The notes under the pieces are model-generated. The model was not told the DNA's origin. It ran no database searches and worked only from the letters and a program-made list of their open reading frames with translations. The position numbers and the translations under genes were made by a program. 6,096 nt of DNA from JBGPLH01 sp041486365 [NCBI: Thermodesulfobacteriota bacterium] (lineage in GTDB: Bacteria; JAUYMQ01): the NCBI GenBank assembly GCA_041486365.1, contig JBGPLH010000207.1, positions 1 through 6,096 on the forward strand, read 5' to 3'. Positions 1 to 6,096 of this stretch are shown in pieces. Numbering within the stretch: the stretch's first letter is position 1; the number at the start of each line of letters is the position of its first letter.

Positions 1-1278
1 CGGCTCGCCGCGCCGCTCGGCCGGGAGCGCGGGATCGATTGCCGCGGAGACCGCAGCCGCCGCCTCTCCGCTCGCCCGGACCGCGCGCGCGGCCACCACC
101 CCGAGGAGGCTCTCGAGAGCCGTCACGTACCGGCCGCGCCAGTCGCGCCAGGCCGCCTCCGATTCGCCGGTCAGCACCCCATCGAGCGACGACAGCGTCT
201 GCGTCACCGCCGGGACGATGGCCCCGCCCAGGATCTGCCGCCAGTGAGAGAGGCCCTGCAGATGGGGGATCATCTCCCGGATCTCGTCTGCCCAGCGGAA
301 GAAGCGATCGGGCGGGAGGCTCTCCGCCGGGACGCGGATGTGCGGCGCGAAGAGCGCGCGGAACTCGTCCTCCAGCCCCGCCACTTGCGCCAGCGCCTGA
401 TCGAAGGGCACCGGCTCCTCGATCGCGGGGGGATCGGCCAGACGCACCATCCCCGACCCCGCCATGGCGTTCAGCGGCCGGTTCGCGAGCACGCCGATGC
501 GGGCCGCGAGCGCGGCCTCGAGCACGGTGAGTCCCTCCTCCTTCCGCTCGAAGGCGGGGGCCGATTCGAAGAGGTTCATCGGGAGCTGGAGCACGCCGAA
601 GTGATGGTACGGCCCGCCCGCGTCGCGCGCGGCCTCCAGCATGGCTGTGAGCGAGGTCGCTTCCGGATCGCCGGGCGGGGCCGCCGCGGTATTGGAGGAG
701 ACGCCGTACCAGCGGACGCGCTCCGCGGCAACCTCCCCCTCCAGGTACGCGAACGCCTTCCGGAGCCGCGCGTGGAACGCTTCCCGCGCTCGCCCGGGCT
801 CCTCGCCCCGGTGCTTCACGGCATCCGACAGGAAGTATTCCGGGTTGTGGAGCAGGCACACGTCGAGCGTGCGGACCCGGAGCCGCTCGAGCGATCGCGC
901 GAGCTGGTCCTTCAGGAACTCCGGGTGGATGCAGTGCCAGACGTCGTCGCCGTACTTCACCATGTCGGGGTACGGCCGGCCCGCGGCCTCCCGCTCCCGC
1001 GCGGCCGCAAGGTTCGTCCCCTGGACGTACCCGATCTTCGAGACGACGACGATCTCCTCGCGGCGCAGGGCGCCGCGCGCGGCGAGGTCGGCAAGGGTGG
1101 CGCCGACGAGCCGCTCGCTGCCGCCGTCGGTGTAGTTCGTCGACGTGTCGATCAGGTTGCAACCCGAGAGCAGGGCGCGTTCGAGCGCCTCCCGGTGCCC
1201 GGCGGTTTCGTCGTCCACGCGGTAACCGCCGAATCCCACGCGGCTCACGGTGAGCCCCGTGCGTCCGAGCTCCGCGTA
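1..1278 (-). other. Aldo/keto reductase domain of the fusion protein
   Basis: This is the second half of the fused protein, from about residue 738 to beyond the window. It opens with the family's usual [19 protein letters not shown] (740-758). The catalytic tetrad of aldo/keto reductases can be assigned: D781 and Y786 in [10 protein letters not shown]818 in VVVSKIGY, and H881 in [12 protein letters not shown]. Later strands give [21 protein letters not shown] and [11 protein letters not shown]. The family catalyses NAD(P)H-dependent reduction of aldehydes, ketones or sugars; no substrate can be inferred here. Two departures from the compact family of about 320 residues are visible. The segment between the catalytic Lys and His is about 30 residues longer than usual and contains [16 protein letters not shown]. 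The chain also continues for well over 100 residues after the last barrel strand, with a Trp-rich helical-looking part ([16 protein letters not shown]) and then an Ala-rich tail still open at base 1. Confidence 0.85.
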
Positions 1279-3489
1279 GCCCTGCGGGCGCCTCGCACGG
1301 TGGCGGCCCGCGAAGGCTTCCGTCCCGGTCGCCGACGCATTCCCGGACAGTGCCGCGCCCAGCCCTTCGCCCCGCCGCGCGCCGCCCGCTTCCTCGCGCG
1401 CGAGCGATTGGAGCAGGCCGGAGGCGGCGAGCGCCTGCGCTGCGAGGACGGGATCGGTGATCGGCGCCTCGCAGGCGAAGTTCTGGCAGAGGTAGAGGGC
1501 GGGCCTGCCGTCCACGAGCGTCTTGTCCCGCAGGAGCGGCAGGGCCGAGACGCCCCGCGCGGGATCGTGGTGACCGACGATCCGGTTCGGAAGGTAGGGC
1601 CGATGCGCCTCCCGGAAGAGCGCCTCCCGCGCCGGGTCACCGGGGGCGCCGATCACGGCGATCTCCACGGGCGCGTCGCGCAGGAAGTCCACGGCCTCGA
1701 GGCTCTTCGCGAAGCCCCGCGGCCAGCGCCGGATGAGGCCGCCGTGCGCCAGAACGGCCGACCCCGCCGCTTCCCGCCAGTCCTCCCGATCGAAGTGATA
1801 CGAGAGGCGCGCGAGCGCCATGGCCGCGGCCGCGTTGGGAGAGGGCGTGGCGCCGTCCATCCCTTCCCGCCGCCGCAGGATCAGCCGCTCGTGATCGCGG
1901 GCGGTCGTGTAGAAGCCGCCCGTCTCCGGATCCCCGAAGTCCTCGACGATCCGCTGCGCCAGCCGTCCCGCTTCTTCCAGATACCGCGCGTCCCCGCCCG
2001 CTTCGTGGAGATCGATCAGCGCCTCCGCGAGATACGCGTAGTCCTCGAGCACCGCGTCCAGATGCGCCTTCCCGTCGCGGTAGGTGCGCAGTAGCCGGCC
2101 GTCATCTTTTCGCAGCGGGCCGAGGAGGAAATCCGCCGCGCGGCGCGCGGCGTCTAGGTAGCGGGCGTCGCCGATCACGCGGGCGCCGGAGGCCATCGCG
2201 CGGATCATAAGGCCGTTCCAGCCCGTGAGGATCTTGTCGTCGAGCCCCGGCGGCACGCGGCGCGATCGCGCGGCGTAGAGCTTGCAGCGCGCCTCCTGGA
2301 CGCTCGCTTCCAACTCGGCCGGCGGGAGGCCGAGGGTCGCGGCCACCTCCTCGATCGGGCGCGGCGCGTGCAGGATGCTCTTCCCCTCCCAGTTGCCGCC
2401 GGACTTCACGTCGAAATACGCACAGGCGCGGCGCGCGCTCTCGGGACCCAAGGTCGACTCGATCTCCTCGCGGGTCCAGACGAAGAACTTCCCCTCCTCC
2501 CCCTCCGAGTCGGCATCCGTGGCCGAGAAGAATCCCCCCTCCTTCGAGGTCATCTCGCGCAGGATGTAGTCGAGCACCTCCCGGCCGATCCGGTGGAAGA
2601 GCGGATCCCCGGTGACCTGGAAGGCCTCCAGGTATACCGGCACGAGCAACGCGTTGTCGTAGAGCATCTTCTCGAAATGAGGGACGAGCCAGCGCGCGTC
2701 GGTCGCGTAGCGCGCGAAGCCGCCGCCGACCTGGTCGTAGATCCCGCCGCGCGCCATGCACGTGAGCGTGTGGGTCACCATGCGCAGGGCGTGCGCGTCC
2801 TTCGTGCGGCGATGGTGGCGGAGAAGGAGCGAGAGGGCGCTGGAGGGCGGGAACTTGGGCGCGCCGCCGAAGCCGCCGAACTCGGGATCGAAGGCCTCCG
2901 CGAGCTGCGCGGCGGCCTTCTCGATCTCGGCGGGCCCCACGGCCATCGCCTGCGTGGCGGAGACCTGCTGTCGCAGGTGCTCCGTGATGGCGCGCGCCTC
3001 CTCCTTCACCTGGTCGGGACGCTCGCGCCAGGCCTCCGCGATCCGGGTGAGCAGCGAGGGAAACCCGGGGCGGCCGTGGGCGTCCCGGGGCGGGTAGTAG
3101 GTGCCGGCGAAGAAGGGCTCCTGCGCCGGCGTGAGGAAGACCGTCATCGGCCAGCCCCCCTGGCCGGAATTCAGGGCCTGGGTCGCCGCCATGTAGATCT
3201 CGTCCAGGTCGGGGCGCTCCTCGCGATCGACCTTCACGCAGACGAAGTGCTCGTTCATGAGCGCGGCGATCCGCTCGTCCTCGAAGGACTCGCGCTCCAT
3301 CACGTGGCACCAGTGGCAGGCCGAGTAGCCGATCGAGAGCAGGATCGGCTTGTGCTCCTCCCGCGCGCGGCGCAGCGCCTCCTCGCCCCAGGGATACCAG
3401 TCCACCGGATTGTAGGCGTGCTGGAGCAGGTAGGGACTGGTCTCCTGGGCGAGCCGGTTGGGACGGCGGCCCTCGCGCTGCCCGCTCAT
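1..3489 (-). CDS. YyaL/Spata20-type DUF255 protein fused in frame to an aldo/keto reductase (C-terminus beyond window)
   Basis: Reading triplet by triplet from ATG at 3489, I find no stop in 1163 codons to base 1, so the gene is 3'-partial here. Residues about 12-170 form the DUF255 thioredoxin-like domain: SPYLLQHA (18-25), [12 protein letters not shown] (27-38), the redox-type motif C58-H-W-C61, KVDREERPD, and GGWP then GTYYPP. Residues about 200-560 resemble the (alpha/alpha)6-barrel part of the family: [11 protein letters not shown] (204-214), [14 protein letters not shown] (248-261), [10 protein letters not shown] (270-279), [14 protein letters not shown] (325-338) and [13 protein letters not shown] (417-429). 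The usual C-terminal CQNFAC motif is at 668-673. B. subtilis YyaL is about 690 residues, so this half is complete. A linker (about 700-736) leads into an aldo/keto reductase. The start overlaps the upstream stop as ATGA, with GAAGGGCGG just before it. The biochemical role of YyaL proteins is unsettled. The barrel is related to sugar epimerases, so a sugar or aldehyde redox role is only a guess. Confidence is high for both domains and good for the fusion. Confidence 0.88.
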
Positions 3490-3821
3490 CCGCCCTTCAG
3501 GGCTTCGTCCGCCTTGGCGGCCAGCACGAAGTCGCTCTCCGTGAGCCCGTTGATCTTGTGCGTCCAGATCTCCACCCGCACGCTCCCCCAGGTGAGGTGG
3601 ATGTCGGGGTGGTGCCCCTGCTCCTCCGCGATGGCGCCGATGCGGTTCACGAAGGCGAGGGCCTGGACGAAGTCCTTGAACCGATAGGTCTTGCGCAGGT
3701 GGTGCTCGTCCACCGCCTCCCATCCGTCGATCTGGGCGAGGAGCTGTCCGATGGCATCCCCCCGGAGCGGCGGAACACCACCCTTGCAGGGGACGCAGTT
3801 CTTCTTCGCGAGTTCCGACAT
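3486..3821 (-). CDS. phhB: Pterin-4a-carbinolamine dehydratase (4a-hydroxytetrahydrobiopterin dehydratase)
   Basis: This 111-residue protein dehydrates 4a-hydroxytetrahydropterin, recycling the cofactor of aromatic amino acid hydroxylases. The whole family motif is visible: E66-x3-H70-H71-P72, W78, H88 and D97, as in [14 protein letters not shown] and [13 protein letters not shown]70, H71 and H88 are the expected active-site histidines. The N-terminus carries C9-x2-C12 followed by KGGVPPL, a common form in bacterial members. The frame stays open far upstream, across dtd in antisense. The ATG at 3821 is chosen because GGGAGG lies four bases before it and because the protein then has the family's usual length and N-terminus. 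The stop overlaps the start of the fusion gene as ATGA, so the two are probably one operon with coupled translation. No pterin-dependent hydroxylase gene is in the window, so the pathway served here is unknown. The symbol is by family; some genomes use pcd. Confidence 0.95.
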
Positions 3822-3938: not shown

Positions 3939-4430
3939 ATGCGACTCGTGATCCAGCGCGTTAGCCGCGCAAAGGTCTCGGTGGATGGTGAAACCGTGGG
4001 CGCCATCGGCCCCGGACTGCTCATTCTGGCCGGTGTGGCACAGGGCGACACGCCGGCCGATGCGGAGCGGCTCGCGCGGCGCTGCGCGGAGATTCGGATC
4101 TTCGCGGACGCGGAGGGGAAGTTCAATCGATCGCTCTCGGACACGGGCGGCGAGGCGCTCGTGGTGAGCCAGTTCACGCTGCTGGCGGATACGCGCAAGG
4201 GGCGGCGGCCGAGCTTCATGGCCGCCGCGCGGCCCGAGGAGGCGGAGCCGATCGTCCATGCTTTCGCGCAGGCGCTTCGCGACGCCGGTGTGCCGACGGA
4301 GACCGGCCGCTTCGGCGCGATGATGGCCGTGGAGCTGGTGAATGACGGGCCGGTGACGGTGCTCCTCGAGAGCGCGCCGGCGGGCCGAGTCGATGACGGA
4401 TTTCAGGCTTCAGACGGATCTAACCGATAA
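3939..4430 (+). CDS. dtd: D-aminoacyl-tRNA deacylase
   Basis: This cytoplasmic proofreading enzyme hydrolyses D-amino acids (and glycine mischarged on tRNA-Ala) from tRNA, protecting translation. The 163-residue product starts [18 protein letters not shown], the standard N-terminus. It contains the SQFTL motif (77-81), followed by [11 protein letters not shown], and ends its conserved part with TGRFGAMM and VNDGPVT (134-140), where G137-P138 is the Gly-cisPro motif of the active site. Both hallmark motifs are intact, so it should be active. E. coli Dtd has 145 residues; here about 18 extra polar residues follow the last strand (from about S145). The frame is open upstream, but ATG 3939 gives the canonical first residues and follows a run of six Gs at 3928-3933. 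It diverges from the dehydratase gene and probably has its own promoter. Confidence 0.96.
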
Positions 4431-4572: not shown

Positions 4573-6096
4573 GTGAGCCTGCCTCGGATCCTCATCGTCG
4601 ACGACGACCGCATGATCAGGACCATGGTCCGGGACGCCGTGGAAGCCATCGGCTTCGACGTCCAGGAGGCCAAGGACGGCCGAGAGGGCCTGCGCGCCGT
4701 GGAGGACTCCCCGCCCCAGCTGATCATTCTCGACGTGCAGATGCCCCACATGGACGGGTACGCGATGTGCGCGGCGGTTCGCAGGCTGGAACCGGGAAAA
4801 GACATCCCCGTCCTGATCCTGACGGTACACGGCGACGCGAAAGCCATTCAGAGGGCCTTCGAAGCGGGCGCCACCGACTTCATCTCGAAGCCCTTCGACT
4901 TGCAGATCCTCCAGCACCGCGTCCTGTTCATGATGCGAGCCAGGAACGCCTTCGCCGAACTGCGAGAGCTCTTCAACGAGCTCGGGAAGAATCGGGAGCG
5001 CCTCGCCACCGCACAGCGTCTCGCGCAAATCGGCCACTGGGAGTGGGATCCGCAAGAGGAGCAGATGCTCTGGTCCGAGGAGCTGTACCGCATCTTCGAG
5101 ATGCAACCGCTTCCGGGTGCTTCAACCTACGCCCGGTTCGTGCAGATGATTCATCCGGATGATCGGGAGGAGGTCGAAAAGGCCATCACCTGCTCGCTCT
5201 CTGATTTCAGGGGTTGGAACCTGGAACACCGGATCATCGCGGCAACGGGCGCCGAGCACATTGTCCACCACCAGGCCGAAATCTCCGACGGGGCTTCCGG
5301 AGCCCCCAGGACGCTCATCGGCACCATCCAGGACATCACGGGGCCCAGACTCACGGAGGAAAGGATCCGCCGTCTCGCGTACTACGACACCCTGACGTCG
5401 CTGCCCAACCGCAGAATGATGATGGAAAACCTGACCCGGGCCATCGAGCGAGCACACCGGGCAGGGCTTCAGGCGAGCGTGCTTTTCCTCGACCTGGATC
5501 GGTTCAAGCGAATCAACGATACGTTCGGGCACGAAACAGGCGATGAGCTGCTCAAAGCCGTCGCCGAGAGGTTATTGAACTGCGTTCGCTCGACCGACTA
5601 CGTGGGGCAGCGAGGACTGACGATGAACAACGCGGCGCTATCGCGGCTCGGAGGCGACGAGTTCACGATCGTGCTCGGCGACCTTCACAAGGCGGAGGAT
5701 TCGGCTCTCATCGGCCGCAGGATTATCGAGAGCATGCGAGAGCCATTCATGGTGAGCGGCCGGGAAGTCGTGATGAGCACGAGCATCGGAATTTCCGTGT
5801 TTCCCACGGACGGGACCGATTCAGGGGCCCTGCTCAAGAACGCCGATACCGCCATGTACCATGCCAAGGAGTCCGGGCGAGGGAACCTTCAGTTTTTCTG
5901 CGAGTCGATGAACAGCAAGGCGGTGAAGCAGTTGCACATGGAGATGGGATTGCGAGCCGCACTTCAGCATGAGGGGTTGATCCTGCATTATCAGCCCAAG
6001 TACGACGCCCGGTCCGGACGTATCTCAGGGATGGAAGCGTTGGTGCGCTTGCGCCTCCCTGACGGCGGGCTGGCGCAACCCATGGAGTTCATCCCG
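4573..6096 (+). CDS. Response regulator-PAS-GGDEF-EAL c-di-GMP signalling protein (3'-partial)
   Basis: 508 codons are present and the frame runs off the window. Residues 1-120 are a receiver domain: acidic pocket D10-D11-D12, phosphoacceptor D54 in LIILDVQMPHMDG, T84 and K106 (ISKPFD). A charged linker helix (about 122-150) leads to a PAS domain (about 146-258; GHWEWD at 154-159, MIHPDDREEV, closing with GTIQDITG). The diguanylate cyclase domain begins YYDTLTSLPNRR (270-281) and has LDLDRFKRINDTFGHETGDELL and an intact GGDEF at 360-364. The EAL phosphodiesterase domain begins at about 457, with LHYQPKYD and an intact EAL motif at 488-490. It is then cut. GGDEF makes c-di-GMP and EAL degrades it; which prevails cannot be told because most of EAL is outside. 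An RxxD (R339-D342) is present but unusually far from GGDEF. No membrane segment is seen, so it is a cytoplasmic output protein presumably phosphorylated by a histidine kinase not in the window. The GTG start has a strong Shine-Dalgarno and gives the usual receiver N-terminus. Confidence 0.95.
   Translation, partial: MSLPRILIVDDDRMIRTMVRDAVEAIGFDVQEAKDGREGLRAVEDSPPQLIILDVQMPHMDGYAMCAAVRRLEPGKDIPVLILTVHGDAKAIQRAFEAGATDFISKPFDLQILQHRVLFMMRARNAFAELRELFNELGKNRERLATAQRLAQIGHWEWDPQEEQMLWSEELYRIFEMQPLPGASTYARFVQMIHPDDREEVEKAITCSLSDFRGWNLEHRIIAATGAEHIVHHQAEISDGASGAPRTLIGTIQDITGPRLTEERIRRLAYYDTLTSLPNRRMMMENLTRAIERAHRAGLQASVLFLDLDRFKRINDTFGHETGDELLKAVAERLLNCVRSTDYVGQRGLTMNNAALSRLGGDEFTIVLGDLHKAEDSALIGRRIIESMREPFMVSGREVVMSTSIGISVFPTDGTDSGALLKNADTAMYHAKESGRGNLQFFCESMNSKAVKQLHMEMGLRAALQHEGLILHYQPKYDARSGRISGMEALVRLRLPDGGLAQPMEFIP

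What the first reader, a model, noticed from the sequence alone, without database searches (positions are those of the whole stretch)
1..3489. In-frame fusion of a complete YyaL/Spata20 protein to an aldo/keto reductase
The sequence shows one uninterrupted frame of at least 1163 codons carrying all the YyaL landmarks ([30 protein letters not shown]) and then a full aldo/keto reductase with its D-Y-K-H tetrad. Between codons 660 and 747 there is no ATG, GTG or TTG, so the reductase has no ordinary start of its own; the first candidate is a GTG at 1248, inside its first conserved strand. That argues for one polypeptide. I do not know of this domain pair as a described architecture. YyaL proteins lack a settled function, so a physically linked NAD(P)H oxidoreductase is a clue: the epimerase-like barrel, the CxxC thioredoxin-like domain and the reductase may act on one sugar or carbonyl substrate. 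The substrate idea is inference only.
Basis: partly seen in the sequence, partly recalled or inferred. Interest (0 to 1): 0.65.

Follow-up and report, generated by a model that had tools for sequence, protein, structure and literature searches.

The report
Conserved YyaL–aldo/keto reductase fusion enzyme
One bacterial gene makes a single large protein that joins an enzyme of unknown job, related to human SPATA20, to a carbonyl-reducing enzyme; the same joint protein recurs in many other bacteria, so it is real and gives a handle for finding out what the first half does.

Summary
The minus strand carries one open frame from ATG 3489 to the window edge (1163 codons): a YyaL/DUF255 module and an aldo/keto reductase (AKR). 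The last ~57 AKR residues lie outside the window. The fusion is conserved: 79 of the 80 best related loci keep both modules in frame at the junction, and all 54 Nitrospirota genomes with a close AKR (198 searched) have it fused. CHWC, a C-terminal CX4C pair and the AKR D-Y-K-H tetrad are invariant in 66 aligned fusions. A complete relative folds confidently (pLDDT 94, pTM 0.89). Fused YyaLs form one clade, with some later AKR losses. In 24 genomes with AKR outside a fusion frame a YyaL gene was also found, while YyaL often occurs without AKR; this hints that AKR acts after YyaL, but kinship is uncorrected. Side finding: YyaL is also fused to DsbD, whose dithiol domain takes the place of the CX4C tail, pointing to a dithiol relay. 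Substrate unknown; hand-over is inference. No description of the fusion was found in the papers searched.

The parts
1..3489 (-). Open frame of the YyaL-AKR fusion (1163 codons, start ATG 3489, runs off the window; about 57 codons missing at the 3' end)
2974..3459 (-). Thioredoxin-like domain (PF03190, residues 11-172)
3307..3318 (-). CHWC redox motif, C58 and C61; present in 27/27 fused, 58/58 unfused and 7/7 DsbD-linked rows
1666..2943 (-). (alpha/alpha)6 barrel, about residues 183-608 (mapped by eye from the model of L049), fold of cellobiose 2-epimerase / N-acylglucosamine 2-epimerase type
   Evidence: Z about 30 to 5zhb, 3vw5; weak PF07221
1471..1488 (-). C-terminal CX4C pair C668/C673 (CQNFAC), in 27/27 fused and 58/58 unfused YyaL rows
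1279..1428 (-). Junction, residues about 688-737, without ATG, GTG or TTG; contains the conserved GxAT....T stretch (G716, A718, T723 invariant in 66 fusions) also seen at the N-terminus of many unlinked AKRs
1246..1248 (-). First in-frame start-like codon after 659 (GTG, residue 748), inside the AKR module
1..1278 (-). Aldo/keto reductase module, residues 738-1163 (C-terminus cut by the window)
1147..1149 (-). Tetrad Asp781
1132..1134 (-). Tetrad Tyr786
1036..1038 (-). Tetrad Lys818
847..849 (-). Tetrad His881
82..435 (-). Helical insertion in the AKR, about residues 1019-1136 (limits read from the alignment); absent in the five short-form fusions aligned and in the compact unlinked AKRs
3486..3821 (-). 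Upstream gene: pterin-4a-carbinolamine dehydratase (PF01329); its stop overlaps the ATG of the fusion (ATGA). Neighbour, not part of the enzyme

Best explanation
It is a bifunctional redox enzyme, most likely cytoplasmic. Shown: one conserved polypeptide, a thioredoxin-like domain with CHWC, an (alpha/alpha)6 barrel, a small C-terminal YyaL part with a CX4C pair, and an aldo/keto reductase with an intact tetrad and a helical insertion. Inferred: the barrel binds a small carbonyl compound, probably a sugar or sugar-like molecule; the CHWC pair does the thiol chemistry and is recharged through the CX4C pair by cellular thioredoxin; the AKR then uses NAD(P)H to reduce a carbonyl that the YyaL part forms or hands over. 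The fusion keeps the second step next to the first. My odds: real fusion 0.97, both modules catalytically active 0.85, same pathway 0.65, direct hand-over 0.35. The confidence given is for the statement as a whole short of direct hand-over.
For: 79 of 80 loci in frame at the junction. Tetrad and both Cys pairs invariant in 66 aligned fusions. All 54 Nitrospirota genomes with a close AKR relative have it fused (198 searched). Where the AKR lies outside a fusion frame, a YyaL match was found in 16 of 16 Acidobacteriota genomes (base rate 195 of 247; Fisher one-sided p 0.02 with no correction for kinship; one of the 16, G415, is cut by a contig edge, so its link is unresolved) and in 8 of 8 Methylomirabilota genomes (base rate 85 of 95). 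The reverse is not true: YyaLs of the fused clade without AKR occur in G167 and G171 and probably in G472 and G481. High-confidence model of a whole relative; barrel of sugar-epimerase fold, AKR near 7utf, AKR11, AKR14 and L-galactose dehydrogenase folds. In all 8 YyaL-DsbD type proteins read, the CX4C tail is gone and a DsbD_N-like part with its own CX4C follows, as expected if the tail is an electron relay.
Against: No substrate, product or activity is known or tested. Co-occurrence is confounded by kinship, and YyaL is common anyway; four Chloroflexota genomes with unlinked or partial AKR matches were not tested for YyaL. Repeated absence of AKR in the fused YyaL clade shows that YyaL does not need it. 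Genes beside the fusion and beside unlinked AKRs give no consistent pathway. I could not see coordinates or PAE, so the distance between the two active sites is unknown.
Confidence: 0.5

Rival explanations
1. Plain tether: both halves are active enzymes in the same stress or redox response but share no substrate. The fusion only fixes their ratio.
For: YyaL occurs without a close AKR in many genomes. No consistent neighbours.
Against: YyaL trees give a single fusion clade found in loci named from several phyla, and AKRs outside a fusion frame still go with YyaL.
Confidence: 0.32
2. The AKR half is a cofactor-sensing or scaffold module, in the way Kv-beta subunits regulate channels (recalled), and does little catalysis.
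For: Foldseek places Kv-beta chains among the nearest folds. The AKR can be absent.
Against: All four tetrad residues are invariant in 66 fusions.
Confidence: 0.1
3. The AKR module passes NAD(P)H electrons directly to the YyaL dithiols, acting as a thioredoxin reductase.
For: A physical link of a nicotinamide enzyme to a dithiol enzyme; elsewhere YyaL is linked to DsbD, which feeds electrons to thiols (function of DsbD recalled).
Against: AKRs transfer hydride to carbonyls and have no flavin or redox cysteines (established knowledge); no Cys is invariant in the AKR part.
Confidence: 0.05
4. Artefact: an assembly misjoin or sequencing indel joined two genes.
For: The window is one sequence of unknown source; at least four of the 80 related loci have broken frames elsewhere in the gene (L001, L042, L059, L063).
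Against: 79 of 80 loci have the same junction, including the complete Nitrospira moscoviensis chromosome. Codon-position GC is unbroken.
Confidence: 0.01

Closest known systems
YyaL / SPATA20 / DUF255 family (Pfam PF03190 Thioredox_DsbH); solved example 7tkv
   Same: Residues 1-690: near full-length match, 7.9e-135 by sequence; a relative's model aligns to 7tkv with Z 50.0, 615 residues, rmsd 2.2. CHWC and CX4C conserved.
   Different: An aldo/keto reductase is joined at the C-terminus.
Aldo/keto reductase superfamily (7utf, AKR11, AKR14/YghZ, L-galactose dehydrogenase)
   Same: Fold (Z about 29-30 over about 290 residues) and D-Y-K-H tetrad.
   Different: 12-26% identity to the solved AKRs listed by the fold searches, a GxAT N-terminal stretch, a helical insertion of about 120 residues after the seventh strand, and fusion to YyaL. 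No NCBIfam model reaches its cut-off.
Cellobiose 2-epimerase / N-acylglucosamine 2-epimerase
   Same: (alpha/alpha)6 barrel fold (Z about 30); the YyaL relative L206 does pass the PF07221 cut-off (35.1 against 23.4 bits).
   Different: PF07221 below its cut-off in the window protein (14.8 against 23.4 bits); catalytic histidines were not tested.
DsbD (protein-disulfide reductase) and the YyaL-DsbD fusions of Acidobacteriota (L168-L173)
   Same: YyaL module fused to a redox partner.
   Different: Partner is a membrane electron transporter that takes the place of the YyaL CX4C tail; predicted periplasmic from an N-terminal signal-like stretch (my reading).

Membership tests
YyaL/SPATA20/DUF255 (PF03190) | N-terminal Thioredox_DsbH domain above Pfam gathering score | tested here: met
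   259.4 bits against 27
YyaL/SPATA20/DUF255 (PF03190) | CHWC motif | tested here: met
   C58/C61, invariant
YyaL/SPATA20/DUF255 (PF03190) | Following (alpha/alpha)6 barrel and C-terminal CX4C part | tested here: met
   near full-length sequence match to 7tkv, model of relative L049, C668/C673
Aldo/keto reductase superfamily | Aldo_ket_red profile above gathering score | tested here: met
   56.4 bits against 24
Aldo/keto reductase superfamily | Catalytic tetrad Asp-Tyr-Lys-His | tested here: met
   D781 Y786 K818 H881, invariant in 66 fusions
Aldo/keto reductase superfamily | (beta/alpha)8 fold | tested here: met
   on the complete relative L049; the window copy is cut short and was not folded
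Aldo/keto reductase superfamily | C-terminal nicotinamide-cofactor segment | tested here: inconclusive
   lies outside the window; present in relatives
Aldo/keto reductase superfamily | NAD(P)H-dependent carbonyl reduction | not testable with these tools
   needs an assay
N-acylglucosamine / cellobiose 2-epimerase (PF07221) | Profile above gathering score | tested here: not met
   window protein 14.8 bits against 23.4; the YyaL relative L206 is above it (35.1); the fold is shared
N-acylglucosamine / cellobiose 2-epimerase (PF07221) | Catalytic histidine pair | not tested
   no residue-level structural alignment was available
YdjG methylglyoxal reductase (NF049922) | NCBIfam equivalog cut-off | tested here: not met
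   31.2 bits against 550
DsbH disulfide reductase (NF043050) | NCBIfam equivalog cut-off | tested here: not met
   21.4 bits against 190

The most novel reading that the evidence does not exclude
YyaL/SPATA20 proteins are two-dithiol enzymes in which the C-terminal CX4C pair relays electrons to the CHWC pair beside a sugar-type barrel. Nature has plugged two redox partners into the same place at the C-terminus: DsbD, which replaces the relay, and an aldo/keto reductase, which removes a carbonyl product. The fusion in the window would then be a self-contained thiol-to-carbonyl reduction enzyme of a kind not described before, and would reveal the reaction type of a protein family found from bacteria to humans.
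Probability: 0.25. Interest if true: 0.78.

Novelty: new variant of a known kind. Interest (0 to 1): 0.5.

Why it matters
YyaL/SPATA20 is widespread and, as far as I recall and as the two papers seen say (PMC7084401, PMC6822775, passages), has no settled function. A conserved link to a carbonyl reductase, with intact active sites, narrows the guess to chemistry that makes or tolerates a carbonyl, and a second link (to DsbD) points to a dithiol relay. Both predictions can be tested on one protein of a cultured bacterium.

Tried and rejected
Gene neighbourhood: ten representatives of recurrent ORF clusters around the fusions were scanned (malic enzyme with ACT, DnaJ, exonuclease with HRDC, OmpA, Ppx/GppA, Competence, AAA/TPR, citrate synthase, thymidylate kinase, one without a family); they look like ordinary synteny and give no pathway. 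Beside unlinked AKRs I scanned one representative per place: CopD and glyoxalase types in L106, a UbiE type in L125 (by BLAST support also beside three more loci), a nitrogenase-component type in L104. No shared clue.

SelO link: a phyletic-coupling paper (PMC6822775, passages seen) lists DUF255 and SelO/YdiU (PF02696) as negatively coupled, which would hint at a shared function. In Nitrospirota I found the opposite: 52 of 54 fusion genomes have SelO against 11 of 144 others (two of the 52, G028 and G135, are weak or partial SelO hits). Kinship probably explains it. I do not use SelO as evidence.

Papers: passages were seen of three papers only: PMC7084401 (Leptospirillum; YyaL near trxB, role stated as unclear), PMC6822775, and PMC13098258 (names 'YyaL/DsbD' among redox maintenance proteins). 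All others were seen as search listings. No description of a YyaL-AKR fusion appeared; one search listed 30 of 129 papers and 15 of 1,000. Subscription papers and preprints are not in that library.

The plasmid collection gave no match to the AKR part at E 1e-20. Methylglyoxal reductase and DsbH assignments were rejected because the scores are far below the curated cut-offs. The absence of the CX4C pair in 7 of 7 DsbD-linked rows was built in, because those rows had been trimmed there; I rechecked on the untrimmed proteins.
Full report
What is in the window. The minus strand has one uninterrupted frame from ATG 3489 to position 1. Pfam places Thioredox_DsbH (PF03190, DUF255) at residues 11-172 and Aldo_ket_red at 753-935. 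The junction has no ATG, GTG or TTG between codons 660 and 747, and codon-position GC stays coding-like through it. The window cuts the AKR short: in complete relatives the frame goes on about 52-62 residues, and that tail holds the conserved LSRKALW..STPGV..VL.GMR stretch. The gene starts inside the stop of a pterin-4a-carbinolamine dehydratase gene (ATGA overlap).

Is the fusion real? A search of the species-genome collection with the AKR part alone confirmed 206 relatives and kept the best 80 loci; the other 126 were not seen. In 77 of 80 the YyaL match and the AKR lie in one open frame. Two of the remaining three keep the frame at the junction: L057 begins at a contig edge inside YyaL, and L001 has an in-frame stop upstream inside YyaL. 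Only L014 (Acidobacteriota) is a separate AKR gene. L042, L059 and L063 have frames broken elsewhere in the gene, which may be MAG errors or decay. The loci carry names from Nitrospirota, Methylomirabilota, Gemmatimonadota, Acidobacteriota, Chloroflexota and a Deltaproteobacterium, and include the complete chromosome of Nitrospira moscoviensis (L011). A caution: only 5 of 77 fused loci lack a start-like codon in the junction, so internal initiation of a separate AKR is not excluded in the others.

How common? With the whole protein as query, 54 of 198 Nitrospirota genomes have a full-length match with no stop inside. The AKR part alone finds the same 54, all in frames of 1224-1292 residues; the only other AKR matches at E 1e-30 are distant compact ones in G129 and a second one in G153. 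In Methylomirabilota (E 1e-40), 18 of 95 genomes have the AKR in a frame of 1000 residues or more, and one more (G478) has an in-frame stop in its YyaL part; 8 have unlinked compact AKRs of 39-43% identity. Gemmatimonadota: 5 of 200, four with frames over 1200 and one broken at 774. Chloroflexota: 5 of 251 at E 1e-30, one fused. Acidobacteriota: 16 of 247, all in frames of 726 residues or fewer. I read the surroundings of 15 of these 16 and found no YyaL beside the AKR; in G415 the AKR touches a contig edge in one place and a second place was not fetched. Fused loci named Acidobacteriota exist outside that sample (L019, L049).

Conservation. In 66 aligned fusions (the window and 65 of the 80 loci; 15 loci were left out as unfused, incomplete, broken or without a clear start) the AKR tetrad D781, Y786, K818, H881, the CHWC pair and the C668/C673 pair are invariant. 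A thinned set of 92 YyaL rows (15 of the 80 fetched unfused or DsbD-linked rows left out) shows CHWC in all rows and the CX4C pair in 27 of 27 fused and 58 of 58 unfused rows. Over all 80 fetched rows CHWC-type motifs are in 78; the two misses, L130 and L173, are cut at the 5' side. The junction is not a random linker: a GxAT....T stretch is conserved (G716, A718 and T723 invariant in the fusions) and is seen at the start of many unlinked AKRs, so it seems to belong to the AKR.

Forms of the AKR. Long forms carry a helical insertion of roughly 120 residues after the seventh strand. It is missing in the five short-form fusions that I aligned (L113-L117; one search shows about eight such rows) and in the compact unlinked AKRs. 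The AKR tree (95 rows, quick method, SH-aLRT; one short row left out) groups the short fusions (98) inside a group of long Methylomirabilota fusions (99), so the insertion was probably lost there.

History. In the YyaL tree (92 rows, quick method) the fused YyaLs form one clade (100) that includes two unfused members, L128 and L129. Their genomes G167 and G171 have no AKR at E 1e-20, so the AKR was probably lost. In the AKR tree most unlinked AKRs fall outside the fusions, but four Acidobacteriota AKRs (L122-L125) are placed among them with weak resolution; their genomes' YyaLs fall outside the fused YyaL clade. So fission and an early separate lineage cannot be told apart, and long branches make this tree unsure.

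Dependence. Among genomes with an AKR outside a fusion frame, a YyaL match was found in 16 of 16 Acidobacteriota (base rate 195 of 247; G415 unresolved as above) and 8 of 8 Methylomirabilota (base rate 85 of 95). One-sided Fisher p for the first is 0.02 with no correction for kinship. Four Chloroflexota genomes with unfused or partial AKR matches were not tested for YyaL. YyaL without a close AKR is common. This one-way pattern is what one expects if the AKR works on something that YyaL makes. It is weak evidence.

Structure. AlphaFold2 on the complete relative L049 (1200 residues, 62 sequences) gave mean pLDDT 94.0 and pTM 0.89; the lowest ten-residue block, 681-690, is at 69. The AKR alone gave 93.1 and 0.89. 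The window's own protein was not folded. The whole model matches 7tkv, a solved YyaL-type protein, with Z 50.0 over 615 residues; the barrel matches cellobiose 2-epimerases at Z about 30; the AKR matches 7utf, AKR11, AKR14 and L-galactose dehydrogenase at Z about 29-30 over about 290 residues. Coordinates and PAE were not available, so I cannot say how far apart the active sites are.

A second fusion. Six Acidobacteriota proteins (L168-L173; L173 is cut by its contig) join a YyaL module, with a signal-like N-terminus where complete (my reading), to a DsbD: DsbD_N, DsbD_TM and a C-terminal thioredoxin were found by Pfam in the two that I scanned (L168, L172), and the other four read alike. L206 and L207 carry only a DsbD_N-like part (Pfam on L206). 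In all eight, the YyaL CX4C tail is absent and the DsbD_N-like part brings its own CX4C followed by L(A/L)PET, which resembles YyaL's C....C.AP.T. The simplest reading is that the tail is a dithiol relay that DsbD_N can replace. This is inference.

Mechanism. Shown: one protein, two complete active-site sets, conserved together. Inferred: barrel binds a carbonyl compound; CHWC does thiol chemistry and is recharged through CX4C; AKR reduces a carbonyl product with NAD(P)H. I give 0.65 to a shared pathway and 0.35 to direct hand-over.

Novelty. Both families are known; the joint architecture sits in public genomes, but no paper describing it was found in the searches listed under Tried and rejected. 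I file it as a new variant of a known kind.

Noticed in passing
L168-L173 (Acidobacteriota), also L206 and L207: YyaL fused to DsbD (or to a DsbD_N-like domain alone), with the YyaL CX4C tail replaced by the CX4C of DsbD_N. The six full types occur in genomes that also hold an AKR of the family outside a fusion frame (link unresolved in G415).
   Followed up: partly
L113-L117 (Methylomirabilota): Short-form fusions that lack the helical insertion of the AKR; it appears to have been lost.
   Followed up: partly
Nitrospirota genomes: SelO (PF02696) occurs in 52 of 54 fusion genomes and 11 of 144 others, opposite to the negative coupling reported for DUF255 and SelO across bacteria.
   Followed up: partly
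window 3486-3821, minus strand: Pterin-4a-carbinolamine dehydratase gene overlaps the start of the fusion by ATGA; it is not among the 45 most widespread neighbour clusters listed (rarer ones were not listed).
   Followed up: partly
window 3939-4430, plus strand: D-Tyr-tRNA deacylase (PF02580), divergent to the fusion.
   Followed up: no
window 4573-6096, plus strand: Response regulator with PAS, GGDEF and the start of an EAL domain, cut by the window edge.
   Followed up: no
L005 1299-3347: A second, more distant YyaL gene (34% identity) a few kilobases from the fusion; a second YyaL match is also seen in many fusion genomes.
   Followed up: no
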